DNA from: Lepraria neglecta
Taxonomy: Eukaryota; Ascomycota; Lecanoromycetes; Lecanorales; Stereocaulaceae
Direction: 5' to 3'
DNA length: 64,000 bases
Assembly (NCBI GenBank): GCA_033220425.1
Contig: CM065646.1
Span: 5,029,501 to 5,093,500, forward strand
This document shows positions 3,822-43,398 of the stretch, piece after piece; positions within the stretch are counted from its first letter, which is position 1, and the number at the start of each line of letters is the position of its first letter. The notes beneath the pieces were generated by a model. The model was given only the letters and a program-made list of their open reading frames with translations. It was not told the origin of the DNA and searched no databases. The position numbers and the translations under genes are program-made.

Positions 3822-4072
3822 TTATAATATATTAGTAATAAATCGAGGAGAAGGAGTAATTTCGGCTACTTCGAGCGGAAGGAGGGTCTAACGCCCTAGA
3901 CGCTTTGCGTATTAAGTTTGTAATATATATAGCTTGTTGATATAGTACTAATTAATTATCCTTATGAGTTTTAGAGCTTTAATTGATATTATAGTAGTGT
4001 AATAAGCTAGATAAGTAATTTGTACGATATTTAAAAAGTGGCGGTTGAGCCGGAGTGGCGGTCGGGCCGGGA
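3822..4072. other. AT-rich remnant between element A and the Fot/pogo transposon
   Basis: No gene is visible in these 250 bases. The sequence is AT-rich with a small GC-richer patch at about 4038-4070 (two GTGGCGGT blocks with GCCGG), which may be the worn end of another mobile element. No partner for that patch was found in the window. Confidence 0.4.
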
Positions 4073-4074
4073 TA

Positions 4075-4134
4075 CTAGTATTGACCCTATAACCGGCAGG
4101 ACCCTACAACCGGCAGGCGCTAAGCCTAATTAGG
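4075..4134 (+). repeat. Left terminal inverted repeat of the Fot/pogo-like transposon
   Basis: The repeat holds a 17-bp unit twice in tandem (4083-4099 and 4100-4116, GACCC..ACAACCGGCAG), then a short tail ending near CTAATTAGG. Subterminal direct repeats of this kind are usual transposase-binding sites, which is inferred here. Confidence 0.85.
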
Positions 4135-4788
4135 TAAACTTCTAAAAAATTAGTAATATTGTCTATATAAACACCTCTATTCAAGGATATTATATAGCGA
4201 ACTAACCGAATTAGGGCTCTATAATATACTCGGAGGTAGCGGACTAGTAGTAAAAGAGGCCCTGATATCCAGAATAGCTATATCTTAGATATATAGTATG
4301 GCACATCCACCCGAATTCTCAAATATATGAATATACTTACTATATTATATCGCAAATCGAATTCGAAATCAGGCCTGAAAACGCGATTGTAATACCTCCT
4401 TCCTATTTGAGTATAGCTTCTATTCTAGTAGTTACCGTAGCTTCCTAATAATCCGACCTCCTTGCGTAGCTATAGGAGTAGGTAATAGCTCTCGCTCAGG
4501 GACTGGCTGCTCCGTCCTCGGTAATGCGTCTAATATATATACTCGGCGAGTCGTGATTGCTGTCGCTCGGGGTACTTTTAGTATTACTATTAGAGGCTCT
4601 AGAAGCTCGAATAGATAGCGGATGAATCCTAATATAGTAAATACCTTCTTCTCGTTATCTTTTCGAGCTCTTACTCTTACTTAACTAATAAGCTTATATA
4701 TTTTGGCTTCTTCTTTCTTCTTCGCTTATTAGATCTTATCTAGTACCTTCTTCTCCTTTACTTCTTCCTTCTATTAGTTTCTTAAAGT

Positions 4789-5196
4789 TGTTAGAACCGG
4801 TGGTTCTAACAGGACTATCCTATAGAACAAGGTGCTATAGATAGGACTAGTAGGTGGAGCGATGGTCACAATAGTAGTATTACTACTATAGCTACTATGG
4901 ATGGTAGTAGCGGGCGTAGTGCTACCAACGCTACTATGAAGGGCTTGGCAGGATTTCCTATATCTATATATACGGGGCTTTGCCTACTATTTGGAACAGC
5001 GTATTTAACTTGGTTAATCTTCCTAGTACTCCTTATACTATACTTCACTAGTTATTAATATAGAATATATTAATTACCTCCAATAACGAAGACTACTATT
5101 CTACCTGAGTAACTCCTCTCCTATAGAAGTATAAGATATATAAAACCCTAGGCGGCTATCGTACTATTAGGTATATAACCGCTATAGGTCGTAATA
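4789..5196 (+). repeat. 5' LTR of element C
   Basis: About 408 bp, beginning TG and ending at a CA-derived TA. It pairs with 10915-11313. The differences are mostly transitions, with a short indel near the (ta/gt)-rich part. Confidence 0.9.
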
Positions 5197-8100: not shown

Positions 8101-10914
8101 TAGTATACCTCGACGATATCTTGATTTACTCTAAGAATAAGGAGGAATACGTTAAGTATATATAGGACGTTATCGAATACCTATTATAAGCGGGACTTCT
8201 CCTTAAACCGGAAAAGTGCGAGTTTTACAGGGACTCTATTAAGTTCCTAGGATTTATAGTCAGTATAAAAGGCATTAGTATAAGCCTAGAAAAGATTAAA
8301 GCTATAGCGGAATGGCCTATACTATAGGACGTCAAGGTAGTACAGAGTTTCTTAGGATTTGCTAACTTTAATAGGAAGTTTATCGAGGGCTACTTAAAGA
8401 AAGTACTTCTACTTATAGATATTACCAAGAAAGATATCGGATTTATATAGGGATACGAATAATAGAAGTCGTTTGACACATTAAAAAAAGTATATATAGA
8501 TCTACTAGTACTCTGTACCTTTTAAGCTAACGAACCGGCTCGTATTAAAATAGATACTTTAGATCTTATAATAGGAGTATACCTTTGTCAAATAAAGGAC
8601 TAAAAGTAGTATCTAGTTACCTACTTTTCACGAAAGATGTTAGTAGTAGAATAAAACTATAATATACACGACAAAGAACTACTTGCCGTAGTATATATAC
8701 TTTAGAATTGGAGAGTATACGTAGAGAGCTACTCGGACTTAACCATCTTTATAGATTATAAGAATCTTCTTAACTTTATAATAATAAAAGAGTTAAATAG
8801 AAGATAAGTCCGATAGTTAGAACTACTTAGATAATATAAGTTCAAGATAACCTATACCCTAGGAAAAGATAATAGTCGAGTAGATACGCTAAGTAGGCGA
8901 TCGGACTATATAGAAGAAAAGAATATTATAGAATAACTAATCCTAAAACGAGAAGCCGATGGATCATTAGTACTATATTAGGTATTAGTAATAACCCTTC
9001 GTATATTAGGATCTAATACGACTAATAGGATCGTAAAGGCCTATAATAACGATATATTCGCAATAAAACTACGGAAGGATCAACAAGATTCGGTATTACT
9101 TAAATATCAGGATAAAACCTACTTGCCTAATATATACGTTGAAGAAGTAATTAGGGATTACCACGATAACCTATTACAAGGTCACCCTAGAGTCTCTAAG
9201 ACTATAGAACTCCTAGGACGAGGATACGCAGCGCTAAAACTTAGGACGTGTATTAAATAATATATTAAGGAATATATTAAGTATTAGTAGAATAAGGCGG
9301 CACGATACGCCAAGTACGGACAAATTCAATTTACACCGGTACCAGAATCACTATAGGATAATATCACAATAGACTTTATAGTCAAACTACTACCGTTAAA
9401 GGATCCAGCTATATAGGAAACCTTTAATTCAATTATAGTTATTATTAATAAACTTACAAAGTATATAATTATAATACCTTTCAAAGAGATATACAAAGTA
9501 GATCAATTAGCCTTTATACTACTAGACAAGCTAATAAGGGATTATAGTATACCTAAGTTAATAATATCCGATAGAGACAAGTTATTCACTTCTAACTATT
9601 AGAGAACGCTAATTATAGTAATTAGAACTAAACTACGGATATTAATAGTATACTATCTATAGACTAATAGATAAACGGAACGTGTAAATCAAATAATAGA
9701 AGTATACCTAAGGTACTATATAAACTAAAAACAAGATAACTAGGTTTTACTACTTCTAATAGTATAATTAGCGTATAATAACAAAAGGTCAGATATAATA
9801 GGTCTGATACTATTCTTTGCCAACTACGGAAAGAATACGAATATATTTCTATAATCTAGGGAAGGACCTAATATAGATAAAGCCTTAGTTAAGGTAGAGG
9901 AGCTAAAAAACTTATATAAGGATATATAAAAGATAATCGAGAGCTTAAATAATAAGTTAAAGGAGTATATTAATAGTAAAAGAATAAATATTCCTCAGCT
10001 TAAAGAGGGGGATAAAGTATACCTTCTAATAAAAAATATAAAGATAATAAGACTAAGCAAGAAACTAGATTATATTAAGGTTAGACTATTCTTAATTAAG
10101 AAGGTAAAGGGGGCCGTTAACTATAAACTCGAGCTTCTACCTGACGCTAAAGTATATCCGGTATTCTATATCTTACTTCTAGAGCTAGCGGACTCTAATA
10201 TACCTCTCTAAGAAACGTTTTATTATAATATTAAGGAAGAAATAGAGTATAAGGTTAAGAGGATCCTAGATAGAAGAAATTAGTTCTATCTAGTTAAATA
10301 GAAAGGGTACAACGAAACAGAAAGTACCTAGGAACCTCTTAGGAACCTTGCGGGGAACTGCGGGGAATACCTACGAGAGTTTTATTAGAGATAAGAGAAG
10401 ACTAGTCGAAGCTCTCAGGGACTTCTATCCCGTTAGGGAGATCGAACTACTTAGACGAGATATTGAATATTAAGTCGTTAGATAGTTTGGGGGTAGTACG
10501 TTAACTCTCCTCTAACTCCCTAATATTCTATAACTCTCAGTCTACTATATTCTTCTTCTCTTTCTTAATAGATTTAAATTATTTATAAAGATAAGAAAGT
10601 TTCGCCTAGGTATCTATTATAGCGGACCAAATTTCGTTGCGTTGCTTTTCTATATAACGTATTTCAAGGACTAACACTATAAGGTCGTATTTCCTACTAC
10701 TATCGACGCAGTTCGAATATCTATCCAAACTAGTACCTACTAGGTACTACTTTCCACTGGTAACACATCGGGAATAGGGGCGTATAATGATTTCAGATAA
10801 CTCGCTAGCCAGCTCCTTGTTTCGAACAGCTCGGTTGCTAGAACGTTTGGTACGTTGGGGTGGCATGAAGGATAGATAGTTTCTCGGGACGAGAAATCTG
10901 GAGGAGGGGGCTAG

Positions 10915-11313
10915 TATTAGAACCGGTGGTTCTGACAGGACTATCCTGTAGGACAAGGTGCTATAGATAGGACTAGCAGGTGGAGCAATAGTAGTATTAC
11001 TACCATAGCTACTATAGATGGTAGCAGCGGGCGCAGTACTACCAACGCTACCATAAAGGGCTTGGTAGGATTTCCTATATCTATATATACGGGGCTTTGC
11101 CTACTATTTGGAACAGCGTGTTCAACTTGGTTAATCTTCCTGGTACTCCTTGCACTATACTTCACTAGTTATTAATATAGAATATATTAATTACCTCCAA
11201 CAACGAAGACTGCCATTCTACCTGAGTGACTCCTCTCCTATAGAAGTATAAGACACACGAAACCCTAGGCGGCTATCGCACCATTAGGTATACAACCGCC
11301 GTGGGTCGTAACA
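10915..11313 (+). repeat. 3' LTR of element C
   Basis: About 399 bp, ending CA and followed at once by AAAGT, which duplicates the bases before the 5' LTR. It is less mutated than its partner. Confidence 0.9.
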
Positions 11314-12022
11314 AAAGTATCCTCCTTCTCTCGCTGTTCTTTAGTAAGTAATCTCTCTTAGATAACTTCTAAGCTTATAACTCAGGCTTTACCGTAAGTA
11401 CCTTGCTTATTACCTTTACGCCTCTAATTTCGTTGACTAGCTCTTATTAGTTACTTATTAATACTCTCTTGAGTTTCCGAGAAGGAGGTAGTATAGATAG
11501 CGGCTTTCCCTAGCTTCTCTACTCGAGGATCGATATTTCCGATAGCTTAAAGGAGGTCTTATATCTACTAGATATTAGTAGGCGTTTTGAAGCTATTAAT
11601 AGTTACCCCGGCTTTAGATAGTATAACTAGACGAATACTAATATCGATATTGATAGGGAGCTTTCTGATAATTATATTGGGGTCCTAGGGAGATAAGCCA
11701 GCTTTCTTCTAAGCGTTTTTGATTATATCCTCCCTACCTACTACTTTCCTTACTTAGTAATAATATTTAATAAATTCTGCCTTATTTACTAAAATATGGG
11801 TAGTAAACCTTGTAACTTCTAATAGCTACTTTCGATATATATTAGCCAAAGGTCCGAAGAATAAGATATCTAGAGGTTAGAGTAGATATATAGAGTAGGA
11901 AGGAAGGTATAAAAGGATAATATTATAAGCCTTATAGAATTTAATAGCTTTATTTAAGATATAAGATTAATAGCCGTCGAATATAAGTATTCTATATTTA
12001 TCTTTTAAGCCTTCTTACTTTA

Positions 12023-12247
12023 TATAACGGGGTCTAGGTATACGTGACTGAGTAACTAGTAGATTTGCTACTAGATAGACTGAATCCTAAGGAACCCAGG
12101 TGGGAGTCCTTAGAGACAATACATTTATCGAGGGAGATTACACCCTCGTATCAAGCCGATCTACTATGCGACTTATACTATCGTATAGCCGTACTAGAGG
12201 GATAGTCTCCCGAACCTAGTCTAGTATCTCTATAATCGGCCCTTATA
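12023..12247 (-). repeat. Downstream LTR of element B
   Basis: 225 bp. It differs from 18139-18363 at about a dozen sites by hand count, all transitions. Five bases before it are CTTTA. Confidence 0.9.
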
Positions 12248-15200
12248 ATTATCCTCCCTTTTCTAAGACGAGCTCCTATAAGGTAGTAAGCGTAGGAAGA
12301 ATAATAGTAATTAACTACCCCTACCGGAGTAGCTTTCTAGTACGCCGGTACCCTATTATATAGATATTATACTAATACGCTAGTAATTATTAGATAACTG
12401 CCGAGTAGACGAAATCCGACTCGAAGTCCGGGTCGATTAGTTAAATCGATATCTTTCGAACTTTAATCCTTCTATCTTATATAACGCCTTAGTCTTATTA
12501 AAACTATAAAAACCTCCCTAGTAGGTAGGAAAATAGATAAAAGAGTACTATCGTTTATAGTATCGCTACGGATATTAACACTTTCTTCTACCCTTGCCCC
12601 TATTCGTAGACGTAGGTCTCTTTAGAATATATTATTGTAGCCTCCTTCCGGTGGCTACCGATTCTACTATAGGCCTATTAGGGTATTCCTTATAAAACTT
12701 TCCTAATAGCTTCTATAGATAAGAGACCCCCTTGAAGGGTTCCTAAGTATCCTCTAAATTAGGATAACCTTCCTAATAGATTTAATAGTATAGGCCTCCT
12801 ACCTTACTATCCTTACCGGGCTTGAAAATTACACTATCTATAATACCAGCGATAATATAGTCCTATATATCGCCCTCATCGAATTCTATATCCTCTAGAC
12901 TTTAGCTTATCTCCCCCTACTTTAAAGAGTCCTTTTCTAGTAAGGATATATAGAATACGTTATAAATTCGCTAGCCATCCGGTAGCTTTAGTCGGTATAA
13001 CTATAAGCTAATAACGTCTATAATAAGGAATAGACCGAATTTCTTAAACTCTAGCTTCCTATTTCGCTTTATCTTTATATACTTAGTATTTAACTAAACG
13101 TAGTCACCGACTTTATAGTCTTATAACTTCTAATATCTATTAGCGAACTCCGCTTATAATTACTATATAGCCAAGATAGTATCCTTATATACGCCTATTA
13201 GTATAAATAAGTATTTTATATTATTAACTACGGCGCGAGAATAAGATTTCGGATTGATTTCCTCGTCCTAAGATATCCTTAGACTATAGCTAAGGTTAGC
13301 CTCGAATAGCGATATACTAGTAGTAGAGTTCTTTATATTATTATAAGCAAACTCCGCTATAGGTAACTACTATACCTAATCATCCTGCTCCTAGCAGATA
13401 AACGCTCGTAAGTATTATTCTATAGTACTATTCTATTACTTAGTCTAGCTATCGGTCTAAGGGTAAAAAGCTATTAAGAGGCGATATCTTACCCCTAGGA
13501 AATATATAAGGCTAGACTAGAACTAAGAGGTGAATAGCGACCTACGGTTCGTTACTATAGAGTCCGGTAATCTATAATAGCGAACTAGGTTCTTAATTAG
13601 TATCTAGGCGAACTGCTTAGCGTCGAGTATCTTATCTACTACTATATAATATAATATCTTTATAAGACGGTCTACGATTATAAGGATCGAGTTATATATA
13701 TACCTACGCTAATCTTTTAATAGGGGTAGCCCAGTTATAAAGTCTAATAATATATCCTTCTACTTATAAGTAGGGACTAGTAAGGGTATTAACTTACTAT
13801 ACGGTTTATACCTTAATAACTTAGTTATAGTATATATAGAGTATATAGTAATATATTCGCTTATATCCTTAGTAAGCTTCGGCTAGAAGTACTTATATTA
13901 AATAAGTACTTAAGTCTTCTTAGTACCGAAATGGCCTACTAGCGGACTATTATAATAGCGTTCTATAACGACGTCTCGTAATACCTCAGGAATATATATT
14001 CGTCCCTTATAGTATAGTCTACCTCTAGCGAGACTATAGGGTTAGCTACTTAGGCCGTTTAGAGAGTTAATCGTAGATTTCTTTAATTATTCTATAATAC
14101 TCCTTATATAATCATCCTTAAGAGTTAACTCTTTAAGTTAATTATTAAAAGACTAGTCCTTAACGGAGTCGCCTATAGGGTCTTCGATTATAATAGTAGC
14201 TTATATTTAGGCCTACTATCCGTATATAACGGGTACCCTATTAGTACTAGTAACGAGTATCTAAAAGTAGCCTGCTATAAAAGTAGACCGCCCTATAGTA
14301 TAGAACCCTTATAGGGTATACTTTAGCTTATTAAGTAGATAATAGTTCTCTTATTCGGTAATACTATTATCCTACTTATAGTTAGGGATCTAACTTAGTA
14401 GGTCCGCGGGATTATATTTCCCCTAACGATATTCGATAGCAAAGTTATAGCGACTTAGTTCTTGCGCCTAACGAATCTAATAACTATTTAGTCACGTAGT
14501 ACTTATAAATCTCTTAAGATTATAATAATCTGTTAAGATCTAGGTCTTATACCTGCTACCCTTATAGTAGTAGTACTAGTATTTAAATAACTTAATAATA
14601 GCTAACAGCTCTTTATCGTACGTATCGTACCGGGTCTCTACCGGAATTTATTTGCGTAAGTAGTATACTACTAGGTGCTATACTTTACTATATAACTAAC
14701 TCAGGATACTACTAATAGTATAGCCCGATATATTAGTCTCTACTTATATTGGTAGTTCTGGATTAAAGTACCTTAGTACTAGTGCGGTAGTAAAAGCTAT
14801 CTTTAAATCCTTAAAGGCCTTCTTTACCTCAGGTATAAGAATAAATAGACTCTTAGAGCTCTTTTCGTTTATCTTGGTACCTCTAGATATAGTAATTATA
14901 TCCCTCTGTATATTAAAGACTACTCGGGTATATAAGTCTATATCTTTAAAGACTACTCGGGCGTATAAGTCTGTGTCTAGGGTACCTTTAGATATAATAT
15001 TTGTATCCCTCTATACTATACCTCTAAATATAATATCTGTACTTCTCTGTATATTAGAGACTACTTGGGCGTACGAGTCTATATCTCTTTTAGGTAGTAA
15101 TATCTTTATTAACTCTATTAGAGGAGCCGTAATATAACTAAACCCCTTAATAAACCTGTAATAGAAATTCGTAAAGCCTACGAAGACCTGAATCTCTCGA

Positions 15201-18138
15201 ATAGATTTTAGTTCTAGCCAGTTCTTAACTAACTAGATACGGTCTTCCTCTATACTCACCTCTATAGGGGCGATAATATAGCCTAGGAAGTATACCTTAT
15301 CTATACCGAAACAATACTTCTAAAGATTAATAAATAGGCTATACTATCTCAATTTGTCTAGAACCTACTTTATAGCCTCGATATACTTAGTACCAATATC
15401 TTATATATAAATAAGAATATTATCAAGGTAAATAATATAAAAGATATCTAGCTTTTCGGCTAATACTTGATTAATATACGCTTAGAACGTTATAGGGGCA
15501 TTTATAAGCCTAAATAGTAAGATTTAGTACTCGAAGTAACTATAACGTGTTCTAAACGCAGTCTTCTACTTATTACCCTTCTTGATATAAAGGTAGTAAT
15601 ATATAGTAGTTAGATCTAATTAAGTATACCTCTTAGCTATAGCTAGGCGATTAATAGATTCTCCGATGAGGGGAAGAGGGTACTAATTCTTAATCGTGAT
15701 TATATTTAGTCCTTAATAGTCTATATAGAGGCGTAGACCTCTACCGGGCTTTCGTACGAAGAGGATTAGTAACCCTACTAGCGATATAGATAGCCGTATG
15801 AAGCCGTTAGTAAGGTTACTCTTAATATAGCCTCGTAAGGTCTCGAGCTCTACCTTGTTCAGGTTATAGATGGGACTATAGGGCGGCTATTACTTGTCCA
15901 TAAGGTCGATAGCGTGATCTATAGGTCCGTGATCTGGTAACCCTATAGTACTACTGTCCGAAAAGACGTCAGAGTACTCGCTATACTCCGGCGGTATTTG
16001 TACTATCTTAGTAGTAGTACTGCTTGCCTAACCGATATATACGCGACGATCCCTATAGACCGGAGGCTCGTTAGCGTTTACTACTTGACACGTATATATA
16101 ATAAAATAGTATGCTTCTTTACTAATGGCAAGCCGAGTGAACTCCTTCGGATCTATAATATCTACTCGATAAGTAGTCGTAAGAGCTACTGCCGCAGTAT
16201 AGATCCTCTACCGGAATAACTTCTTAACCTAATCAATATCTGGATTCGCTATAGTTAGCTATAGTATACTAAGAATTATTCGGGTATCGATATCTACAGC
16301 GAGAAAGGTATCCTGAAAGTAGTAGACTCGGCCTTATTTGTCCTCTTGCTGGAATTCGATATAGTGTATCCCGTAGGTCTTTACTACCTCTCTATAGATC
16401 GTACTCAGCCTAATATTAGTATTAAGTACCAGTAAGCCCATCTTCTAGGCGCTTATACGGTTGATAATATTTACTTTAGTACTACTATCTGCTAGTATAC
16501 TAAAAGTCTTGGTCTTACCCTTTATATTTAGTACTAGAGTATTACTAATAAAGATACTATCTATCTTTGATAGTTCCTTGATTCGCTAGGTTATAGTGTG
16601 AACCTTTACCGCCTACACCCTTATATTAATAATAGGTTCTACCTTAGTAGCTAGTAGGGTATTCGATTCAACATTCGACTCGGTATTCGACTCGATGTTC
16701 GACTCGATATTCGACTCGATATTCAACTTAGTATTCTAACTCGGACTAGCGTTGCCCGATAAGATATCTATTAGCTCGGATTCACCGAGGAGGGGAGTTA
16801 TTATGATTACTCCTCGTATAGGTACAGCGGTCGGAGCTATTACTATATCTACTTGTTTTTTACTATATCGAGTATTGCTTAGGTATTATATAATATTTGA
16901 TCCTTTACTATATAATTATATATCTTATATCTAGATAACCCGTATTTGAAGTACGTCTAATCTCTCTATTAGCGGTCCCGGATATCTTTAGATAATTTAT
17001 CCTTCTATATAATAAAGGGAGGCTTATTACCTAAGTCCTTCTTACTATTATAACCCTTCTTCTAATTATAATTAGCTATTCGGTTAGACTTATTATCCTT
17101 CTTCGAAACTTAGGGTTTTATAGACCCCTTAGGACGAGACTTATCTCTCTATCCGTCCTTCTATATATATATTCTTACTATTTTCTTATATCGGTAAACC
17201 TGATATAATAGTTCGTATATAGTCTTTGGCCTAGGAATTAGCTTGTCTAGCTTTATCCTATATTCCTGAAGTAGTTATACTTAGAAGTAGTTAAAGAATT
17301 ATTGATTAGTAAAAGATCATTCCCTATTAAGGGCCCTAAGGCGAATATATAGCTTGTATATATAGTTATAATACTTATTAACCGAATCGCCCTTTCGCTG
17401 CCTTATATTTACTAGTTTCTAGCTACCTTCGGTATACGCCTCGTCTTTATCGCCCTCGAGGAACTTATATAATAATATCTTAAAATATATCTACGAGTTA
17501 GCCCCTACCGGGAACTATAGTAACCAAGACTTCTAGTTAGTCTTAGCTCTATCCTCTAGGAAGCCTATAGTATAAGCGACTTTCTTCTTTATTTCCTCTA
17601 TTTAATATACTTAGCCCGCTAGTATCTCGCCTTCGGGGTCTTCTTACTTAAAGCCTTTAGTATTAAACTAATACTTATATTCGTATAGAAAGTCGTCTAG
17701 TTCCTCCGGGGTATTACCCTTATATAGCTTTAGGTCTTTTATCTTTAAGCTTGGGATCGATCTCTTTACTATCCCTTATATCTCGAAACTTAATAAGGCC
17801 TATTAATAGTGTATCTAATAGGCCTGAAACACCGTATACTCCTCGGTATTCACCTGTATTATACTGGTACCGGCTTCTTCGCCCGCGTCAGCTCCTCTAA
17901 GCGTACTATCGCTAGGATCTAATCTGAGTTATTATCTTACTCCCGCTAAGGAAGCTATTATAACTTATAGTTAACTGTTCAATTCGATATTCGATTCGAA
18001 TTTTAACTAACTGGCTCGATACCGGCGTTAATCGGTAGGTAGGTAGCGGTGATAGTAGTCACAGCGTTAGTTAGTTATTAGACGGGCATACCCCCTTACT
18101 ATCGTGTCGATGATAGCGAGAGTTTTAGGATTCAGAAA

Positions 18139-18363
18139 TGTAACGGGGTCTAGGCATGCGTGACTGAGCAACTGGTAGATTTACTACTAGATAGACTGAA
18201 TCCTAAGGAACCCAGGTGGGAGTCCTTAGAGACAATACATTTATCGAGGGAGATTGCACCCTCGTATCAAGCCGATCCACTATACGACTTGTACTATCGT
18301 ATAGCCGCACTAGAGGGATAGTCTCCCGAACCTGGTCTAGTATCTCTATAATCGGCCCTTACA
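18139..18363 (-). repeat. Upstream LTR of element B
   Basis: 225 bp with clean TG...CA ends on the plus strand, followed by CTTTA (18364-18368). It is the least mutated of the three copies of this LTR. Confidence 0.92.
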
Positions 18364-19319
18364 CTTTATATATTCGTAGAAGTACTCCTTTATCCAAAGT
18401 AGGCCTAATTTATTATCTATCTAGCCGTTCTTACTATATATAATATAACTCTAGACCTTCTCTTTACTTAGTACTTCCTAGTAGACTACTTACTATTACT
18501 TTCCTTTAAAGATAATCTAGGGCTAAAGGAGTCTTCCGTCGAGCGAGATAAGCTTAAGGAGAGATACCTATTCCCGATTACCGTAATAAGTAATATATAG
18601 TTAGATAGTATATTTTGAGATAATGTATTTAACCTTCTTTAGGACTCTAAGCATAAAGCCTTTCTCGTCTATATTATATATATCCTAGTCTTCTATATTA
18701 TACTTCTATTTTATTATAATATAGAGCTCGAACTAATAAGCTATCGTTGTAGGGTTACTAGCGGTATTATTCCTATTCTTATCTATAGGCGAGAGGAATT
18801 TCGTTTTCAGATCGGGATAGCGATACAAGAACTTATCGACCTAATAATATCCTAGATCTCTTATATAGCCTCTTTTCTAAAGTATTTACTAGGCTATAGA
18901 GCGCAATTGAATAAGCCTTAGTAGCTACCCCTATTTACTGAGTTATATTATCTATCTCACAATAGAAGCTTCTTCTGCTGGTAATAGTAATTGCCGTTCC
19001 TCGTCGTATTCCTTCTTTAATCTTGCCCCTTTAATCCGATCTTGTAGAGTACTCTAACTAATCCGAAAGCGACTAGTAATCTAGTAAATAGGTTCGGCTT
19101 ATAGGGTGCTAACAACTTTGTAATAAAAGTGCAGAGCCAATAGGATTCTTTGCTCCTTTGGGAGCTCCAGAGGACCTGTCTAGAGGTCTTCATCATCGGC
19201 TAGATCTGGGAGAGGGTCCAGGGGCTTGTAGAGCGTTGACGTGGCTATAATAGTGGAGTTAAGTAGGTGATATGGAGCAATTCGAATAGAATTGTTTATG
19301 GTATTTGTTTACTACTATG

Positions 19320-19379
19320 CCTAACTAGGCTTAGCGTCTGCCGGTTGTAGGGTCCTGCCGGTTGTGGGGTCAATACGAG
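19320..19379 (-). repeat. Right terminal inverted repeat of the Fot/pogo-like transposon
   Basis: Reverse complement of the left repeat with only a few transitions and the same doubled 17-bp unit. It is less mutated than the interior. It lies about 200 bp upstream of the F-box-like gene's first usable ATG. Confidence 0.87.
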
Positions 19380-19576
19380 TATCTTTTAACCATGTTTTTG
19401 CATTTCAAAAATCGGATTGGAGTCTATATAAGAACTACTCATCAGGCACCGAACGTTCAGTAGTATACTTGAAAGCTTGGATTAAAACCTACGACAAGAA
19501 ATACCTTCGAGGCTGTAACTTCATTGAGATCGCGGCCAACCCATTCTTGGAATCCTTGCGGGTTGAAAAGCCACTA

Positions 19577-20580
19577 ATGTCTTTGGATCGACTTCCGGCC
19601 GAGCTCCTGCAGTCCACAGCCAATTGCCTGCCCAAAAGCTCAGCTGCATCTCTTACTCTATGCTGTCGAGCTCTATCTATAAACGTGGGCACTCAATACT
19701 TACAGGCATTGCGCGACCAAGGTCTACGGACAGAGAGGCAGAATTTCCTAACCTCCTTACAACGAGATCTGAGCGATTGGATCCTTTGCCATCACTGTGA
19801 GAGACTCCAGCGTCGCGAAAGACTTGGTCCATGGGATCATAACAACCCATGTGTGAAGGCCACTGGCGTCCTTGAGTTCGTGTATGACAGGAGCTGCAAT
19901 AATGAGCAAAGTGGTGGAAAAACTTTCAAACTAGGATTTCAACATGTGCAGTTGCTGATGAACCATTACCAGTCTGCTTCCACGCAGTCTGATCCCTCTC
20001 AATTGCTTATGAGCCAAATCCGGTCTGTTACTGCTCAATCACACATTGCCAAGCACCAACCACAGGGTTTGCACCTTTCTACATCAATGAATTCGCCACG
20101 CCATGCACTCCACTTCGAGCATCAAGACACAGATCATCGAGTGATCATAACTGGACGAGCGATAGCCGACGAATTCGTCCTCAAATTTGACTCCCATATT
20201 GTCGCTCCCCGCCGCGAGAAGCTTAAGCATTTCCGAGAATACGCGGCAGACATTTGTCCGCACATCCACAATACCCATGACTCCTCTCCGCTGGCTTCGT
20301 TGCTTCGTTGGAAATTAGAAAAATGGATGGCGATTCTTGGGCTAAATTCGACCAGTGTTATTGGTGTCAGACAGAATACCTTGTTGAGATCCAAAACGAA
20401 GGTCCGGATGAAATATCACTTCATATTTGCGCATGGAGAAATCTGGGTTCGCTCAAGTCGCATCTTGATGAGAAGTGGCAGCGCCAGTTGAGCTATGGAT
20501 TTCACACAGTCGATTATAGGAGTTTCAACTATTTCCCAGGAAGTGTTAGGGACGTATTTGAGGCGGAGGAAATATCATGA
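19577..20580 (+). CDS. F-box-like protein, uncharacterised fungal family, frame change near 20.3 kb
   Basis: The frame opens upstream within the transposon repeat, but the first good ATG is at 19577. It gives MSLDRLPAELLQ and then a stretch with LTLCCRALS, which is the look of an F-box (adaptor of SCF ubiquitin ligases). Further on are paired cysteines in the pattern CHHCERL (about 19787) and, in a second frame from about 20310, CYWCQTEY and ALHI-like LHICAW. Such paired-Cys motifs are common in uncharacterised fungal F-box proteins. The frame changes between about 20258 and 20340. Either a short intron lies there or one base is lost; I could not decide. No function beyond a probable substrate-adaptor role is claimed. 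The transposon end lies about 200 bp upstream. Confidence 0.6.
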
Positions 20581-33200: not shown

Positions 33201-34171
33201 GTGGGTAATCGTATTGCTCGGACAGGATGTGCAAGAGCTCAGCCATTGGCTCCGCAAGATGCTCAAAGTAGGAGAGATTCTGAATGATCGATGTCTGTGC
33301 TCCTGCGAAAAGTCAGCCGGAATGACCACTGCTCCATAGGTAGAAGACTACCAAAAGCATGTCCATGGTGCTTGACTGCTATGCAGAGCACCTTGAAAGC
33401 GTGCATACGCAAAGCCGTGCTCTTTATCCGCCGTTCACTCTCCAGAATCAGGTATACAGGCCGCGTAAAAAGTCCAACAAATGTATCCCTTTCCGAAGTC
33501 GTCACAAAGATCTTTCCAAGCTTCAATTTCAGCACCTTGCACATTGTATCCAGAGCAGTCTGTAGTTGCGCTGAAGAATCCCAGCTACCATCTTTTGCGG
33601 TTCCTTTGGTTTTTACGCCCTTTCCACCTCGGACTTTCACAGGTGCGCCACTAGGCTTTTCTGCGGCTTTCACCTCCACGACGGATATGGACCACTGCAA
33701 CAGGAATGCATACATCTCCAACAACTGTTTCTGATGCCGGGAAGCACCTTGTTCCTCTGGCTCGAGGTCATTGTGGACGGCATCTGCCTCTGACGAGAGG
33801 CCGGAGATGATCAGATCGAAGATCTTGCTAAGGGAGAGCGTAGGCAGTAGAGAAGCTGACCTGGATAGTTGGAAGAGTTCAGAATCTGGGTCACTAGGGA
33901 AAGTTTTCTGGGAGATAAGAGAATTGGGGGCACACTTGAGTAGGAACTGCAGTGAATCGAACGTAGAGCTTCTAGTCAAAGCTTCAGGATTCTCTGCGAT
34001 CGAGTCCACGATTGGGTTGAGAACGCCATTGACCAGGCTGATAGTGAGCGATTCGGGATCGCTCTCACAATCCTGTAGAGCTCCGTCTGCCTCGGGGGTT
34101 GCTATTGTAGCGGGGTCGCTGAGGTATTGCTTGAGCGTATCATTGATGTCGAAGTCCACCTGGTCTCCCAT
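30262..34171 (-). CDS. Condensin complex subunit 1 (Cnd1/Ycs4, NCAPD2)
   Basis: HEAT-repeat subunit of condensin, needed for mitotic chromosome compaction. The start at 34171 reads MGDQVDFDINDTLKQYLSDP, as in other fungal Cnd1 proteins. The long middle exon (about 32811-31570) holds DLEQKFPKRRQ and SSNVRRNAIKLLGKL. The following exon holds RSNVVIALGDMAVCFNHL, DASVKRTCLMTLTFLIL and KVKGQLGEMAKCLED, the best conserved condensin D2 region. An in-frame 54-nt intron (30433-30486) with clear GT and AG ends interrupts the last part. The C-terminus is RLVEAAA. Roughly 1200 residues. The divergent partner Cdc7 is now about 4.3 kb away because of the transposon between them. Confidence 0.93.
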
Positions 34172-34331
34172 GGTGAACTAGAGCGATAGAAAAAGGGAAC
34201 CCTTGTTGATGCGATAGAGAGATTTCAAGTCATATCAGATCGTAGTTGTCGCAAAATCGGTGTTTACGGCGCACGGACCATTGTTTACTTTTAGTAGTAG
34301 ACGCGTCCCGCGCCTGCCCCGCTAAGCTTTA
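34172..34331 (-). promoter_or_regulatory. Cnd1-side half of a split divergent promoter
   Basis: 160 bp between the Cnd1 start codon and the mariner-type element. With 38324-38474 it would form an original intergenic region of about 310 bp between two divergent cell-cycle genes. Its last two bases, TA at 34330-34331, are the target duplicate. Confidence 0.6.
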
Positions 34332-34422
34332 CAGTCGATTGCAAAACCATTGGCGGGAACGCTAAGGCACTTTCGGGGTACCCCACCACACACCAAATTC
34401 TGGTGGCAGAACGGGTATATAG
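34332..34422 (+). repeat. Left terminal inverted repeat of the mariner-type element
   Basis: Starts CAGTCGATTGC and matches the right repeat over about 91 bp with only a few mismatches. Inside is a small palindrome around GGGGTACCCC and an imperfect one around ACCAAATTCTGGT. Confidence 0.93.
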
Positions 34423-34558
34423 AAAGTGCTGCGTTGTCTCTGCAGTAGTGCTCATGTAGTCTTCCTAAAACGGCAAAGATGAAGCCGCCAGTGCCCCATA
34501 TATGGTGTTTTGTCTCCCCCCGCGCTCGTAGACTGTAGACCTCATTGTCGCTGTCGCT

Positions 34559-36976
34559 ATGGGCCCCAGAAAGCGTCGTTCCAGTACGTTTGACAGGTAT
34601 GCTGCCGTCGATAGAGAGCCTGCTGTCGCCCAGACACCTCGCCGTCTGACCCTGAAGCCTCCTGCCCCTGCTGCTGCTGCTGCTGCCCCTCAGACACCTG
34701 GACGTCTGACCCTCAACCCGCCAGCCCCCCCATCTGGACGGCTGGTGCTGAAGCCACCCCAGGCGCCTGAGCAGGCTGAGAAGCGTCCACCGCCGCCCAA
34801 AAAGGATGGCAAGGCAGCTCCTCAACGAGCTTTGAAGCCAGCTGCTAAGAAGGCCTCTAAAAAGGCTTCTCAACCAGCAAAGCAGCCCTCCCCAGAGCCC
34901 GAGCAAAGCCCCCCCTGTAGTATAGACGGATCTTTGCATGCTCCCCGTACATTCCACTCAAGTATGCCACCGCCACCTGTCTCGTCTAGCCTCTTTTCAA
35001 GCCAGCAGTCGTCCTCAGCGCTATTCCTCAGGGCAAGAGCTCAGAAGGCAATTGATTTGGTGCCAGATACACCGTCTCGAACGTCTATAACCTCATTTCG
35101 ACATGATCTGCTCGATGAGGATGACGATTCTGATGGAGCTGGGCCCGAGACTCAGTTATCCAACACTCAGACGTATTTCGATACCCAGCAGCCCCAAATA
35201 AGACGCCATTCGTCTGAAAGCCTGTTCGTAGGCGTCGAAGGTGAATCGAATAAGAGGTGGACGCAGGCTAGGAAGGAGATATCTCGTAGGGAGGACGTTT
35301 TCGGTGAGAGTGAGGAGACTCCAAAGGATGTCGATAACTCGCAGTCTACGGCTGGTCAGCAATCCCACGGTTCTACTACAAATCAGAAGAAGGGGAAGGC
35401 AAATTCGATACACCTGGATAGTGAGGACGAGCTCGAATCGCCAGGACGTGTTGCTTTTAAATATAAGCTTGCTGTCAGGTCATTCTGGGAGAAAGACATC
35501 CAAAGTTCGATTATTCGCAGCCAGACCTTCCGGGACTATACTGTCGATGGCAGTAACGACATTCTTATTAGAACTATGCATAATCAGCAGAAGGAATTCG
35601 CCGCTAAATGGGCTATAGAGAGAGGCCACGCCTGCTTTCGTGTCTCAGTCCAAGCAACACCATTTTATGAGAAGCTTACAGGGCCGAATCGACGTTCTAC
35701 CACCGCCGAGACGCAGCAGGACTGGTATAGTGTTGAAGACGAGCTTCGGGAGTGGCAGAAGGACGGAAAGAAGGGCCTACAGGTGGACCTTATATACCAT
35801 TGGGCCCGTAACAGCACGGGGGAGATCCCCGTAGTTGGCAAAGCAGCTGAGAAGAAGCCTGGGACGATTGTTTCAGGAACAGCAAGAGGCTCTACACATA
35901 TCCCAACTAATAGGCTTCTTGGGGAGATGGATGAGACGAATGCAGGGGAGCCTTGGAGGCAAAAACAACAGGAAATACACAATCGATGGGCTTGCAAAAG
36001 TTCTATATGCAGCAATACGGGCCACTATTGCTATTTGCATAAGGGCGAGCATATACCCTTCCTTCCAAGGCAGTCGAAGATGTGGGCAGTTGCTATCCTA
36101 AGAGATACTACAGGTCGAATAAGTGACGACGAGCCTCCTGCGTCTTTACTTGTTGAACTACAGCAGACGCAGAAGAAGGAGGCTCGTAAAGAAAAGAGAC
36201 GACATACCACTGAGACACCAACACAGCCTACAACTACACCTGCTTATCCTACTATAGGAGGGCAGTTTGGACAGCCACCGCCTTTGTATCCCTACGGATA
36301 TAGCTTCCAGCCTGGCTTTCAGCCACTGATATCAGGGCCCCAGTCGCTGAGAGACACGAGAACGTCAGATCTGATAAAAGAGCTTCGCTCTAGAGACGTG
36401 GATCCAACTGAGACAACTACTCGACCCCCTCACTCGATCTCTCGCTCAGTCACAGCAACACCAGGCCTCTCGTCCTATCGAAATAGCAGCCCTGTCGAAG
36501 GCGAACTAGCCGAGTTCGTTGGATGGTTAAGCAAAAAGCACCCTGAATACATAAAAGCATATGAGGAGGCTAAGGACGAGCTTATGGATCAGGGCTATAC
36601 TACAGATATCATACAAGCCTGGAAGAATGACGAGCATGAGGAGCAGTGGCGTAAGCTTGGTATTAAGCCTGGGATTGGCCGCCAATTGGCTAGAAACGTC
36701 AGTAAATGGGGCCGTGAGAGGCAGGTTCAAACGACTCTTCATGTTGGAGGTCTAGGAAGAACTCTCCCATTATCGCCATCGCGGCAGCGTTTAGCAAGCA
36801 GGCCTCAGCAGACGTCCTATAAGCAGGGACATATAATTCCGTCTGTTGAGACGAAAGCTTATGAAGATGAGACCCAGGATGATGACCCGGATATATACGA
36901 TCTATACGGTGGAGCGAATCTTAGTGATTCAGACTGTTTTGCAGAGACTCAGCTGGAGACTCAAGCAAAGACCTAA
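34559..36976 (+). CDS. Uncharacterised 805-residue protein carried by the transposon
   Basis: One uninterrupted frame, starting MGPRKRRSSTFDRYAAVD. I do not recognise a named family. Residues 1-160 are basic, proline- and alanine-rich and probably disordered, with two copies of TP-RLTL-PPAP and polyalanine. An acidic Ser-rich stretch lies near 185-300. Residues about 300-500 look folded (VAFKYKLAVRSFWEKDIQ, WAIERGHACFRVSVQ). They end in a Cys/His cluster, WACKSSICSNTGHYCYLHKGEH, that could bind zinc (split here: WACKSSIC, then SNTGHYCYLHKGEH). Residues about 650-720 form a helical, SAM-like region (FVGWLSKKHPEYIKAYEEAK), which suggests a DNA- or protein-binding role. The acidic tail holds QDDDPDIYDLYGG. 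No catalytic motif is seen. It might help transposition or bind chromatin; that is inference. Confidence 0.8.
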   Translation: MGPRKRRSSTFDRYAAVDREPAVAQTPRRLTLKPPAPAAAAAAPQTPGRLTLNPPAPPSGRLVLKPPQAPEQAEKRPPPPKKDGKAAPQRALKPAAKKASKKASQPAKQPSPEPEQSPPCSIDGSLHAPRTFHSSMPPPPVSSSLFSSQQSSSALFLRARAQKAIDLVPDTPSRTSITSFRHDLLDEDDDSDGAGPETQLSNTQTYFDTQQPQIRRHSSESLFVGVEGESNKRWTQARKEISRREDVFGESEETPKDVDNSQSTAGQQSHGSTTNQKKGKANSIHLDSEDELESPGRVAFKYKLAVRSFWEKDIQSSIIRSQTFRDYTVDGSNDILIRTMHNQQKEFAAKWAIERGHACFRVSVQATPFYEKLTGPNRRSTTAETQQDWYSVEDELREWQKDGKKGLQVDLIYHWARNSTGEIPVVGKAAEKKPGTIVSGTARGSTHIPTNRLLGEMDETNAGEPWRQKQQEIHNRWACKSSICSNTGHYCYLHKGEHIPFLPRQSKMWAVAILRDTTGRISDDEPPASLLVELQQTQKKEARKEKRRHTTETPTQPTTTPAYPTIGGQFGQPPPLYPYGYSFQPGFQPLISGPQSLRDTRTSDLIKELRSRDVDPTETTTRPPHSISRSVTATPGLSSYRNSSPVEGELAEFVGWLSKKHPEYIKAYEEAKDELMDQGYTTDIIQAWKNDEHEEQWRKLGIKPGIGRQLARNVSKWGRERQVQTTLHVGGLGRTLPLSPSRQRLASRPQQTSYKQGHIIPSVETKAYEDETQDDDPDIYDLYGGANLSDSDCFAETQLETQAKT

Positions 36977-37025
36977 ATCTATATATAACCTAGATTGCAA
37001 GCTTTCCCTCTTATTATATACACAA

Positions 37026-38110
37026 TTATATGTCTCCTTCTTCCTCGTCTGACTCCTCTACTTGTCTGACTGCATTATTGATGCCCTCATATTCGATCCC
37101 TGCTAAGCGGAAGAGATTGCCTGCATCGGGCCATGGATCTTGAGCCTCTACCGCTAAGTTTAGAAATTCTCCATATGTATTATCTGTTGCAAAGAGCTCT
37201 CCAATGTCCTGATGTCTCTTCATCCAAGCCTTCAACACAGCGAAAGATGTCTCAATAGGGTTCAAATCTGGCGAATATGGAGGGAGATATTCGAGCCGAA
37301 CGCCTGCTTCCTGGCACATCTCTGTCAACTCAGAGTTCCAGTGTATCTTGCAATTATCCATTATAAGTACAGACATAGGACCGCCGCTTTCGTATGGAGT
37401 GCAATGAGGGAGGATTCGATCTCGGACGAATTCGTTGAACATCGCGGCGGTAATGGGCCCCTGGTATATTATCCAATCGATATAACCGTCGATTGTAAAG
37501 GCAGGTAATAGACTCCATCTCTTATTCCTCTTGAGGTTCTGTATAACTGCCGGTGTTCTTCCTAGAGGTCCCCATCCAAATTTTCGATCCCCTGAGTACT
37601 GTTAGCAAGCACCAGCCAATCAGAAGAGATCTCACCTGTACGCTCACAAGCAGCGCTCTCGTCCAGAAATATAAGCTGGTCAGCTCGCCAATCAGAGAGC
37701 TTGGTGAACCAGTAGTCTCGGAGCTCTTGGTTGCGTTCCTTAGCAACCTTGCGGCACTTCTTTCGAGACCAACCAATGCGTGTAAGAGCTCTCCAGATTG
37801 TAGCCTCATCAACCTGGACATCAAATTCATCCAGGAGGAAGAACGCCATCTCATCCAGATAAGCCATAGGACGTTGCTCCAAATACGCCAAAAGCTCTTC
37901 CTCGTACACTTGGTGCAGAGCCCTTGGCCTCCCACCGCGGTTCTCACTGGGTATATACACCTCTCCATATATCCTCCAGCTTCTCCTCATACGCTGTAGT
38001 GTCCGCAGGCTAACATCATATCCACCAAGCAGAATGGTGTCGTTATCGAAACCGAGCTCAAGCTCTCGCTGAATAGCAGCCCTGGTGTATGGGTCTATAG
38101 GTAGGACCAT
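37026..38110 (-). CDS. Tc1/mariner-superfamily DD34E transposase, intact
   Basis: Exons 38110-37636 and 37591-37026 join over a 44-nt intron (37592-37635) to 346 residues; the splice gives ERTGDRKFGWGPLGRTP. The N-terminus has paired helix-turn-helix sequence (SLRTLQRMRRSWRIYG, ATIWRALTRIGWSRKKCRK). The catalytic triad is readable: Asp in IFLDESA, Asp in LIMDNCKIH, and Glu in YLPPYSPDLNPIE, with 34 residues between the last two. These are marks of fungal Tc1/mariner/IS630 transposases. It cuts and pastes the element at TA. Start codon, splice sites and all three acidic residues are present, so it may be active. It converges with the 805-residue gene. Confidence 0.93.
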
Positions 38111-38232
38111 AGTGGACAGCGAGGGAGGTGGTTGTGGGCAAGCAAAACACCAAGGAATGACGTCTACAGGGCCTCACTATTGCCTTTTTGAGAAATGTTC
38201 AATTGCATCTACGGTCTACAGTACAGTCCTCC

Positions 38233-38323
38233 CTAGATACCCCTTCTGCCACCAAAATTTGGTGTGTGGTGGGGTACCCCGAAAGTGCCTTAGCGTTCCC
38301 GCCAATGGTTTTGCAATCGACTG
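38233..38323 (-). repeat. Right terminal inverted repeat of the mariner-type element
   Basis: Reverse complement of 34332-34422, ending CGACTG before TA. Confidence 0.93.
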
Positions 38324-38474
38324 TATCAGATCCCTCCACGTGTGACAAGGATAGCTCCATCACAGCATGATGGCGCCTTGATAATTTTGAGAGCTACTTC
38401 CCCGAGTGCATCCCTTTTAGACTTCGCCATGTGACGTGGATCAAGTTTTGTGTCATAATACTAACGCGAAAGTA
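38324..38474 (+). promoter_or_regulatory. Cdc7-side half of a split divergent promoter
   Basis: 151 bp between the transposon and the Cdc7 ATG. The kinase promoter is thus almost certainly altered by the insertion, or its start now lies near the transposon end. Confidence 0.55.
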
Positions 38475-40123
38475 ATGGCAAAGCGTCCAGGGCCAATTGC
38501 GGAGGAGAATCCTTTCCTCAGAGGTACAGATCTTGCGCCGGTAACTGCCCTCAGCGAAAAGCTAGGACTGAGTCCTGGAACACGTTACGAGGAACAGCAT
38601 GATACGGATGGCGAGGATGTATCGGAAGAATCTCAGCGTTCTGGAGACGAGTCGGAGGAGGATGAAGTAGAGGTGGATGAGTCCGTTCAGGAAGAGATGG
38701 CCAAATTGGAAGATATATTCGAAGAGAGAGGACTCAGATATCGAATGATCGACCGCATTGGCGAAGGTAATGCTAAAAGAGCAGTTCGTATACATTTGGC
38801 GAGCCAATTGGCTAACTAGTACCTGCAGGGACTTTTTCCACCGTCTACAAAGCCGAAGACCTCCACTACGAATACTATCAGAACGATTGGGATATAGAGC
38901 CTAAAGATGCCTTGAAGTGGACATCTCCCCCGTTCAAGCGGAGGAGGAACGGCGAGTCGCAATCTTCCACCACATTAGTCGATAGCCAGAGCCAACGGCG
39001 GCAGCGTCAACCTCGCTATGTCGCCATCAAGAAGATCTATGTTACAAGTAGCCCAATGCGGATACAGAATGAGCTCGAGCTACTCCATGACTTAAGAGGA
39101 TGCAAGGCCGTTTGCCCTTTAATCACCGCTTTCAGACACCAAGACCAAGTCGTGGCCATATTGCCACATTTCCGGCATCAGGATTTCCGGGTACTTTTTC
39201 TTTTAATCGCTATGCTTTCCCTAGCTGACCTGATATAGATGTTCTATCGTGGAATGACCGTTTTTGACATCAAGATCTACTTTCGATCTTTGTTCGAGGC
39301 TCTCGCCGCCGTACATAAACATGGTATCATACATCGAGATATCAAGCCAACGTGAGTAACCAAATTGAGACTGTTGGACACTGCTGACTGGAACAGAAAC
39401 TTCCTTTATGACATTGACCGGCAGCGAGGAGTACTGGTAGACTTCGGCCTAGCTGAGGTAAGCTAGAAACACGGTTGTATTTTTCGTGATACTGACTCGT
39501 GGTAGCGTGAGGGTAGCGACTCTTCGCATTGCTTATGTCAAGATCATCCGACCAGTAGGAAAACCAAGATAGAGTCCAGCAAAGCGCGAAACCAGCCAAT
39601 CCCAACTGGATTCCCGAAGAACGACCCACGGCCATCAAGACGAGCAAACCGAGCAGGGACAAGAGGGTTTCGGGCTCCTGAGGTCCTCCTCAAATGCACA
39701 GCCCAAACAACTAAGATCGACATTTGGTCTGTCGGGGTCATAATGCTGACGATCCTGGCACAACGATTTCCGTTCTTCAATTCCGCCGACGACATCGAAG
39801 CCATGATCGAGATTGCTACCATATTTGGCCAGCAAAAAATGAGGCAATGTGCAATGTTGCACGGCACAATGTTCGAATGCACGATTCCTACAGTTGGCAA
39901 ACATGGATTTGCCTTGTCTCAGATCGTCCATTGGTCTTCCGCGAGGGCGCCTGATGAGGGAGAGGACCCTGATCCAGAAGTCAGAGAGGCCGTGAAGTTC
40001 CTAGAACAGTGCTTAGAGTTAGATCCTCGGAAGAGGATGTCTGCAAGAGCGGCGTTAGCGAGCGACTTTCTGGCTAAAGAAACGCTCTCTGATACTGAGC
40101 CGGAAGAGATGGATGTATTATGA
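38475..40123 (+). CDS. Cdc7/Hsk1 (DDK) cell-cycle protein kinase
   Basis: Catalytic subunit of Dbf4-dependent kinase, which fires replication origins by phosphorylating MCM proteins. Five exons join in frame (38475-38766, 38829-39190, 39239-39351, 39397-39457 and 39506-40123) to 481 residues. Kinase marks in order: glycine loop RIGEGTFSTVYKAED, VAIKKIYVTSSP, HKHGIIHRDIKPTNFLYD, VDFGLAE and GTRGFRAPEVL. WSVGVIMLTILAQRFPFF and the C-lobe block LELDPRKRMSARAAL follow. A long insert between DFGLAE and APE (about 60 residues, Ser/Arg-rich) and one after the glycine loop are typical of Cdc7 kinases. The acidic N-terminus is species-specific. The upstream frame lacks an ATG, so 38475 is chosen. Confidence 0.94.
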
Positions 40124-42849: not shown

Positions 42850-43398
42850 CAACGCTGTTGATGGTGCAAGTGGTGCAGTTTAAAAGGCAAACTGCACCAT
42901 TTACGAGAGTTAAATGGTTCGTGGTGTGGTTTGAAAGTCGAACCGGTTTAAACCATAGAAACCAATAGTGCACTACTGGTTTAAACGGTTTCAGGGTAGA
43001 GACGCTGAAAAGGAGCTGCATCTCACCAAAATCGGGTGGGAAGTTGCTCGAGCTCATTCCGAATTTCCTCAAGGGATTCAAGTGGATCTGGAGTCATAAC
43101 CCCGCTGTATCGTCTAAATGAGGGCTTAGAATAAGTTAAAAGTTGAAGAAATATTCCGCGGGCAAACCTCGGACATAGGGCTAGGGCTATTAACTCTTTC
43201 AGGCAGCTCGCTAACCCGATTAAGAACGATCGTTTACTCCTTCAACACCAGTAATGCTAATGGTTTAAACCACTAACCATATAAGTCAAACCGGTTTAAA
43301 CTACTAACCAGATAAGTCAAACTGCATCAACTATTAAGCAAAAAAGGCTGCACCACCTGCCAAGCCCTCAAACTGCCGGTGCACCATCAACAGCGTTG
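42850..43398. mobile_element. hAT-type MITE, 549 bp
   Basis: Non-autonomous element with inverted ends CAACGCTGTTGATGGTGCA (42850-42868 and the reverse at 43380-43398) and an exact 8-bp duplication AATAGCAC on each side (42842-42849 and 43399-43406). An 8-bp duplication points to the hAT superfamily. There is no coding capacity. A hairpin lies at 42872-42898 (GGTGCAGTTT, 7-base loop, AAACTGCACC). The motif GGTTTAAAC occurs four times, two of them within a 31-bp tandem repeat at about 43262-43322. These are likely subterminal transposase sites, by analogy with other hAT elements. Confidence 0.85.
43262..43322. repeat. Tandem 31-bp repeat inside the MITE
   Basis: Two copies of a unit beginning GGTTTAAAC and continuing ACTAACCA-ATAAGTCAAAC, with two base differences. 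Confidence 0.8.

What the first reader, a model, noticed from the sequence alone, without database searches (positions are those of the whole stretch)
34332..38323. Whole mariner-type transposon carrying a second, 805-codon gene of unknown function
Matching 91-bp inverted repeats, TA on both sides, an intact DD34E transposase and, convergent to it, an intact 805-residue frame. Tc1/mariner elements normally carry only a transposase. The passenger has a disordered basic N-terminus, a Cys/His cluster near residue 480 that looks zinc-binding, and a helical SAM-like stretch near residue 660. If the same pair recurs within matching repeats elsewhere, this is a two-gene transposon family with an accessory factor.
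Basis: partly seen in the sequence, partly recalled or inferred. Interest (0 to 1): 0.85.

Follow-up and report, generated by a model that had tools for sequence, protein, structure and literature searches.

The report
Two-gene fungal Tc1/mariner-type jumping element
A complete-looking jumping DNA element in a fungal genome carries, besides its transposase, a second large gene that could not be assigned to any known family, an unusual layout that resembles two-gene elements already reported in other fungi.

Summary
Window 34332-38323 has TA on both sides and 91-bp terminal inverted repeats with 3 mismatches. It holds two convergent genes whose stop codons lie 49 nt apart. One is a 346-aa DD34E transposase, intact once a 44-nt intron is spliced out. 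The other is an intact 805-codon ORF that scores as coding in all 8 blocks tested. Window 1-19000 is strongly RIP-like in composition, the element is not, so it is probably recent or low-copy.

The passenger has no Pfam or NCBIfam match and no significant PDB sequence match. The proposed SAM domain was not confirmed.

A two-ORF Tc1/mariner family is already published in Pyrenophora tritici-repentis (46 members, 31 nearly identical with both coding regions), with similar sequences in Alternaria (PMC3538342, passages). The kind is known; this passenger is unassigned. Best reading: a compact two-gene element whose second protein is a nuclear accessory factor (inferred).

The parts
34330..34422 (+). 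left TA plus 91-bp terminal inverted repeat
   Evidence: 90 of 93 positions match the right end, first 70 identical
34423..34558 (+). left leader between TIR and passenger ATG; shares diverged similarity with the right leader, including TGGTGTTTTG at the same distance from the TIR edge
   Evidence: local score reached by 8 of 2000 and global by 4 of 2000 dinucleotide shuffles
34559..36976 (+). passenger gene, 805 aa, one open frame, no recognised family
35993..36052 (+). Cys/His cluster of the passenger (residues 479-498), putative zinc site
   Evidence: positions of C and H; zinc binding is inferred, not shown
36476..36757 (+). five-helix segment of the passenger (residues 640-733)
   Evidence: single-sequence AlphaFold2 model, mean pLDDT 72.8, pTM 0.57; 10 Foldseek PDB rows, best E 7.0
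37026..37591 (-). transposase exon 2 with stop codon (D237, E272)
   Evidence: DDE_3 on the spliced protein E 1.7e-29
37592..37635 (-). 44-nt intron of the transposase, GT...GCTAAC...AG
   Evidence: splicing inferred from the frame
37636..38110 (-). transposase exon 1 (N-terminal HTH, D150)
   Evidence: HTH_33 E 5.8e-07 and HTH_32 E 9.4e-07 on the spliced protein
38111..38232 (-). right leader between TIR and transposase ATG
38233..38325 (-). right 91-bp terminal inverted repeat plus TA

Best explanation
[quoted passage not shown] The DD34E transposase cuts the element out at its inverted repeats and pastes it into TA. The convergent 805-residue protein is an element-encoded accessory factor that probably acts in the nucleus: a long, probably disordered N-terminus, a putative zinc-binding core and a C-terminal helical segment suggest a DNA- or chromatin-binding partner that helps transposition or expression of the element. 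Shown: element boundaries, both open frames, the coding signal, the tight packing and the absence of RIP-type bias. Inferred: splicing, mobility, expression, disorder, zinc binding, nuclear location and any help to transposition.
For: Near-identical ends and TA on both sides. DD34E transposase with HTH and DDE_3. The passenger is open and coding-like throughout; its mean codon score (0.13) lies near those of the transposase exons (0.16, 0.18) and within the range of the 9 host stretches (0.10-0.29), which also trained the model. The two genes fill nearly the whole element: 49 nt between stops and 136 and 122 nt between TIR and ATG, so there is little room for captured noncoding DNA. The leaders of the two genes resemble each other beyond the 91-bp TIR. 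Precedents: a Pyrenophora Tc1/mariner family of 46 members, 31 nearly identical with both coding regions, and Styx, a fungal IS3EU-type element with two putative DNA-binding proteins.
Against: One copy was seen, the only one in the window, and neither the host genome nor other fungi could be searched. No dN/dS, expression or excision data. No domain was recognised in the passenger, and its full model is poor (mean pLDDT 37.6). The authors of the closest precedent read their case as transduplication, that is, capture (PMC3538342). An accessory role rests on layout and analogy; a passenger could be open simply because it was captured recently.
Confidence: 0.45

Rival explanations
1. The passenger is a host gene, or a gene from elsewhere, captured by chance (transduplication) and not needed for transposition; it is still intact because the element is young.
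For: Transduplication in fungi is reported: in Pyrenophora a hAT element with a histone H3-like gene and a Tc1/mariner with a sequestered ORF (PMC3538342, passages). Near-identical TIR ends and no RIP-type bias fit a young insertion. Passenger codon scores are like those of host genes.
Against: Tight packing with little room for captured flanks. No known domain. The failure to find relatives hardly counts, since those collections are not fungal.
Confidence: 0.3
2. The passenger serves the element against host silencing or RIP, or serves the host, as cargo rather than as a partner of the transposase.
For: The element lacks RIP-type bias although a 19-kb block in the same window is strongly biased. 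A probably disordered N-terminus plus a putative zinc site could fit a chromatin factor.
Against: A single-copy or young element would also be free of RIP, as the neighbouring genes are. Nothing ties the protein to silencing.
Confidence: 0.15
3. The passenger belongs to a separate mobile or repeat family (for example a nested element) that only happens to lie inside this one.
For: No sequence tie to the transposase is established. I recall fungal hypothetical proteins with a similar Cys/His pattern, but no call supports this.
Against: The only inverted-repeat pair longer than 27 nt in 33800-38900 is the outer one, so there is no sign of a nested TIR element. The two leaders resemble each other.
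Confidence: 0.08
4. The 805-codon frame is not a gene.
For: No relative was found in the collections searched, which are not fungal.
Against: 805 open codons, 23-64 stops in each of the other five frames, and positive codon scores in 8 of 8 blocks of 100 codons.
Confidence: 0.02

Closest known systems
Two-ORF Tc1/mariner repeat family of Pyrenophora tritici-repentis, with similar sequences in tandem on an Alternaria alternata BAC (Manning et al. 2013, PMC3538342; passages read, supplements not read)
   Same: Tc1/mariner-type transposon of a filamentous ascomycete with a second ORF between its TIRs; 46 members, 31 nearly identical with both coding regions; transcripts reported.
   Different: Its second ORF was found through Pfam PF08946 (osmosensory transporter coiled coil); this passenger has no Pfam match. 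The sequences could not be compared, so they may or may not be the same family.
Fanzor1-carrying mariner elements (PMC3627910; passages read)
   Same: Tc/mariner TIRs and TA sites with a passenger protein beside the transposase.
   Different: This passenger lacks the [TS][TS]XX plus C4-finger part of the TnpB/Fanzor motif and has no Pfam match.
Ciliate TBE and Tec elements (PMC7325037; passages read)
   Same: DD34E transposase with additional ORFs, one of them a zinc-finger protein in TBE.
   Different: Three ORFs, ciliate hosts, and in Tec TIRs of about 700 bp and a site-specific recombinase.
Styx of Zymoseptoria (PMC10853768; passages read)
   Same: Fungal class II element with transposase plus putative DNA-binding accessory proteins (GATA, CCHC).
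   Different: IS3EU-type, four ORFs, 7.9 kb.
ToxTA (PMC12506042; passages read)
   Same: TA target site, 74-bp TIRs, passenger cargo in fungi.
   Different: Much larger (about 14 kb), described as likely non-autonomous, carries ToxA.

Membership tests
Tc1/mariner superfamily | TA target site on both sides | tested here: met
   TA at 34330-34331 and 38324-38325
Tc1/mariner superfamily | terminal inverted repeats | tested here: met
   90 of 93 positions including TA
Tc1/mariner superfamily | DDE/D transposase with Tc1-type spacing (DD34E) and N-terminal HTH | tested here: met
   34 residues between D237 and E272; DDE_3 E 1.7e-29; HTH_33 29.5 bits above its cut-off of 25; HTH_32 29.7 bits below its cut-off of 33.7
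IS630 family (NCBIfam NF033545) | score above curated cut-off of 100 bits for the whole protein | tested here: inconclusive
   59.8 and 63.9 bits for the two ORFs scanned apart, the first read on into the intron; the spliced protein was not scanned
A named Tc1/mariner subfamily | placement in a transposase tree | not tested
   no eukaryotic relatives were available; the 4 PDB sequence matches are weak (TnsAB fusions E 0.014 and 0.025, Sleeping Beauty 0.63, SETMAR 1.1)
Fanzor/TnpB | [TS][TS]XX plus C4 zinc finger part of the motif given in PMC3627910 | tested here: not met
   no match in the passenger; no Pfam match
SAM domain | Pfam or structural match | tested here: not met
   no Pfam family at E up to 10; 10 Foldseek PDB rows, E 7.0 to 9.8; the model is only moderate, so the fold is not excluded
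Pyrenophora two-ORF Tc1/mariner family | second ORF with PF08946 | tested here: not met
   no Pfam match at E up to 10
Pyrenophora two-ORF Tc1/mariner family | sequence similarity of TIR, transposase and second ORF | not testable with these tools

The most novel reading that the evidence does not exclude
A lineage of fungal Tc1/mariner elements has evolved into an obligate two-component transposon: a so far undescribed zinc-containing, oligomer-forming protein works with a DD34E transposase, binding the subterminal leaders that extend the TIRs, and may also help the element avoid silencing in a RIP-competent genome.
Probability: 0.2. Interest if true: 0.7.

Novelty: new member of a known kind. 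Interest (0 to 1): 0.45.

Why it matters
Tc1/mariner transposases are generally held to need no element-encoded partner (recalled general knowledge). An apparently intact two-gene element in a filamentous fungus gives a concrete, testable case for an accessory protein in this superfamily, beside the Pyrenophora family that its authors read as transduplication (PMC3538342). If the second protein is required, such elements are two-component systems and not chance captures; if not, they show how mariner elements carry genes along.

Tried and rejected
SAM domain: sequence and fold searches gave nothing significant; kept only as a five-helix segment. Among the 10 Foldseek rows, rank 10 is the CEP-1 oligomerisation domain (E 9.8); from memory that domain contains a SAM fold, but the match is at chance level. 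PDB sequence rows for the passenger were all weak: 1 row at E 1.5 for the whole protein, 5 rows with best E 0.31 for residues 640-733, none for residues 285-560. PHROGs gave one row at E 0.36. PADLOC was not searched. Fanzor/TnpB: motif part absent. Sleeping-Beauty-like IR/DR ends (outer and inner repeats within one end): four comparisons, reached by 483, 171, 257 and 484 of 500 shuffles. Hairpin in the left TIR folded as DNA: z -0.08. Passenger related to the transposase: local score 50, reached by 1 of 200 shuffles, but the alignment is gapped and short; not relied on. The 10-mer test was made after I had seen the shared 10-mers.

Relatives: a plasmid match to residues 425-494 in 3 Rhizobium records at E 0.2-0.4 was taken as chance. 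None for the passenger in phages, viral contigs or genome contigs; none for the transposase in viral contigs or genome contigs. The scans look first for six exact 8-residue patterns, so they reach close relatives only; 5, 4, 8, 37, 5 and 10 stretches matched a pattern, and none was confirmed. No exact 22-nt TIR match in viral contigs. These collections are not fungal, so the nulls say little.

Literature: ten searches, seen as listings of 40 rows or fewer, two of them empty, and passages of 12 papers, did not show this passenger described. Subscription papers and supplements were not seen. The 12 papers: PMC4112212 (passages and section 9), PMC3562529, PMC9594970, PMC7325037, PMC3627910, PMC12506042, PMC4905642, PMC3017866, PMC10853768, PMC9587614, PMC3538342, PMC9977792 (passages).

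An earlier count gave a wrong intron position; one search corrects it to 37592-37635.
Full report
Check of the observation. The coordinates are right. The element proper is 34332-38323 with TA on each side. The two ends match at 90 of 93 positions counting the TA (88 of 91 without it), with mismatches at positions 71, 83 and 90, and the first 70 positions are identical. In 200 mononucleotide shuffles of the element the longest exact match between the 150-nt ends was 10 nt. The joined flanks leave a single TA. No second copy of the element or of either gene lies in the window.

Transposase. On the minus strand two ORFs join across a 44-nt GT-AG intron (37592-37635) into a 346-aa protein. Pfam gives DDE_3 at E 1.7e-29, HTH_33 above its cut-off and HTH_32 below its cut-off. 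The triad is D150, D237, E272 with 34 residues between the last two. NCBIfam's IS630 model matches both ORFs, scanned apart, below its cut-off (59.8 and 63.9 of 100 bits). Splicing is inferred from the frame, not from RNA.

Passenger. The 805-codon frame at 34559-36976 needs no intron. With a codon model trained on 9 stretches of window genes it scores positive in 8 of 8 blocks of 100 codons. The other five frames are negative in 7 of 8 blocks; in codons 301-400 one antisense frame scores 0.02 against 0.13 for the gene's frame. Those five frames hold 23-64 stops each. It has no match in Pfam or NCBIfam at E up to 10, one weak PHROGs row (E 0.36) and weak PDB sequence rows (best E 0.31). A Cys/His cluster lies at residues 479-498; zinc binding is inferred. 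Residues 1-300 are rich in P, S, T and Q (0.38 of residues; 0.16 hydrophobic) and weakly basic (43 K+R, 36 D+E), in line with disorder, which no predictor tested. The whole-protein AlphaFold2 model without relatives is poor (mean pLDDT 37.6). Residues 640-733 alone give five helices at mean pLDDT 72.8 and pTM 0.57, but Foldseek found no PDB match better than E 7.0 (10 rows), so the SAM idea stands unconfirmed.

Layout. The two genes converge with 49 nt between stop codons; 136 nt and 122 nt separate the TIRs from the passenger ATG and the transposase ATG. These two leaders resemble each other: the local alignment score was reached by 8 and the global one by 4 of 2000 dinucleotide shuffles. Two 10-mers are shared, one (TGGTGTTTTG) at the same offset of 80 nt from the TIR edge in both. 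Of 2000 shuffles, 25 gave at least one shared 10-mer and none gave two; I had seen the 10-mers before making this test. I read this as a diverged inward extension of the TIRs to about 190 nt. No outer-inner repeat of the IR/DR kind was found in four comparisons.

Setting. The element lies between a condensin subunit gene (Cnd1_N E 4e-59 and Cnd1 E 1.3e-44), whose start is 158 nt to the left, and a likely kinase gene, whose likely ATG is 149 nt to the right. Of the two kinase fragments scanned, one gave Pkinase at E 4.2e-4, below its curated cut-off, and the N-terminal one gave nothing; I name it Cdc7-like from memory. With these genes, ATG9, the short intron and the RIP-type bias, the host is most likely a filamentous ascomycete (inference; no call names it). 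Window 1-19000 is AT-rich (GC 0.30-0.40) with RIP indices of 1.45-1.92 (TpA/ApT) and 0.12-0.56 ((CpA+TpG)/(ApC+GpT)) in 19 steps of 1 kb, against 0.47-1.04 and 1.02-1.74 in the 44 steps from 20001 on; the step 19001-20000 is intermediate at 1.02 and 1.15. The element reads 0.89 and 1.28. So the host lineage seems to have had active RIP, and this element, like the genes around it, shows no mark of it: single or low copy, or recent arrival.

Relatives. No whole genome is held for this window. The passenger was not found in phages, in viral contigs or in genome contigs. Plasmids gave 3 chance-level Rhizobium rows. The transposase was not found in viral contigs or genome contigs. An exact TIR pattern was absent from viral contigs.

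What is known. [quoted passage not shown] The authors call it transduplication. Its second ORF was found through PF08946, which this passenger does not match; the sequences could not be compared. Other multi-gene relatives or analogues, from passages: Fanzor1 mariners (PMC3627910), TBE and Tec (PMC7325037), Styx (PMC10853768), Kolobok lineages with accessory proteins (PMC9587614) and ToxTA (PMC12506042). In Cochliobolus heterostrophus complete Tc1/mariner copies range from 1.3 to 3.9 kb, but the potentially active ones there have a single ORF (PMC4112212, section 9).

Verdict. The feature is real, well bounded and apparently intact. Its kind, a Tc1/mariner-type element with a second gene, is known in fungi; the passenger protein is unassigned here. 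Membership in the Tc1/mariner group is met on the three features tested for it; membership in the Pyrenophora family is open, with one feature (PF08946) not met. I favour an accessory, DNA- or chromatin-associated protein (0.45) over chance cargo (0.3).

Noticed in passing
1-19000: A block of about 19 kb with GC 0.30-0.40 and strong RIP-type dinucleotide bias, with a 3.8-kb direct repeat (1-3837 and 14565-18378, 91.6% identical) and smaller repeats, next to gene-rich DNA of normal composition.
   Followed up: partly
34172-38474: The element sits in what would be a roughly 300-bp shared upstream region of two divergent genes, a condensin subunit and a likely kinase (Cdc7-like by recall), 158 nt and 149 nt from their likely starts; an effect on their expression is possible but untested.
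   Followed up: partly
34423-34558 and 38111-38232: The leaders of the two element genes share diverged similarity and an in-register TGGTGTTTTG, possibly subterminal binding sites or remains of longer TIRs.
   Followed up: yes
36518-36709 and 37515-37777: Weak local similarity between the passenger's helical segment and part of the transposase (score 50, reached by 1 of 200 shuffles), gapped and not relied on.
   Followed up: partly
43262-43322: Two tandem copies of a 31-bp unit that begins GGTTTAAACC (93% matches).
   Followed up: no
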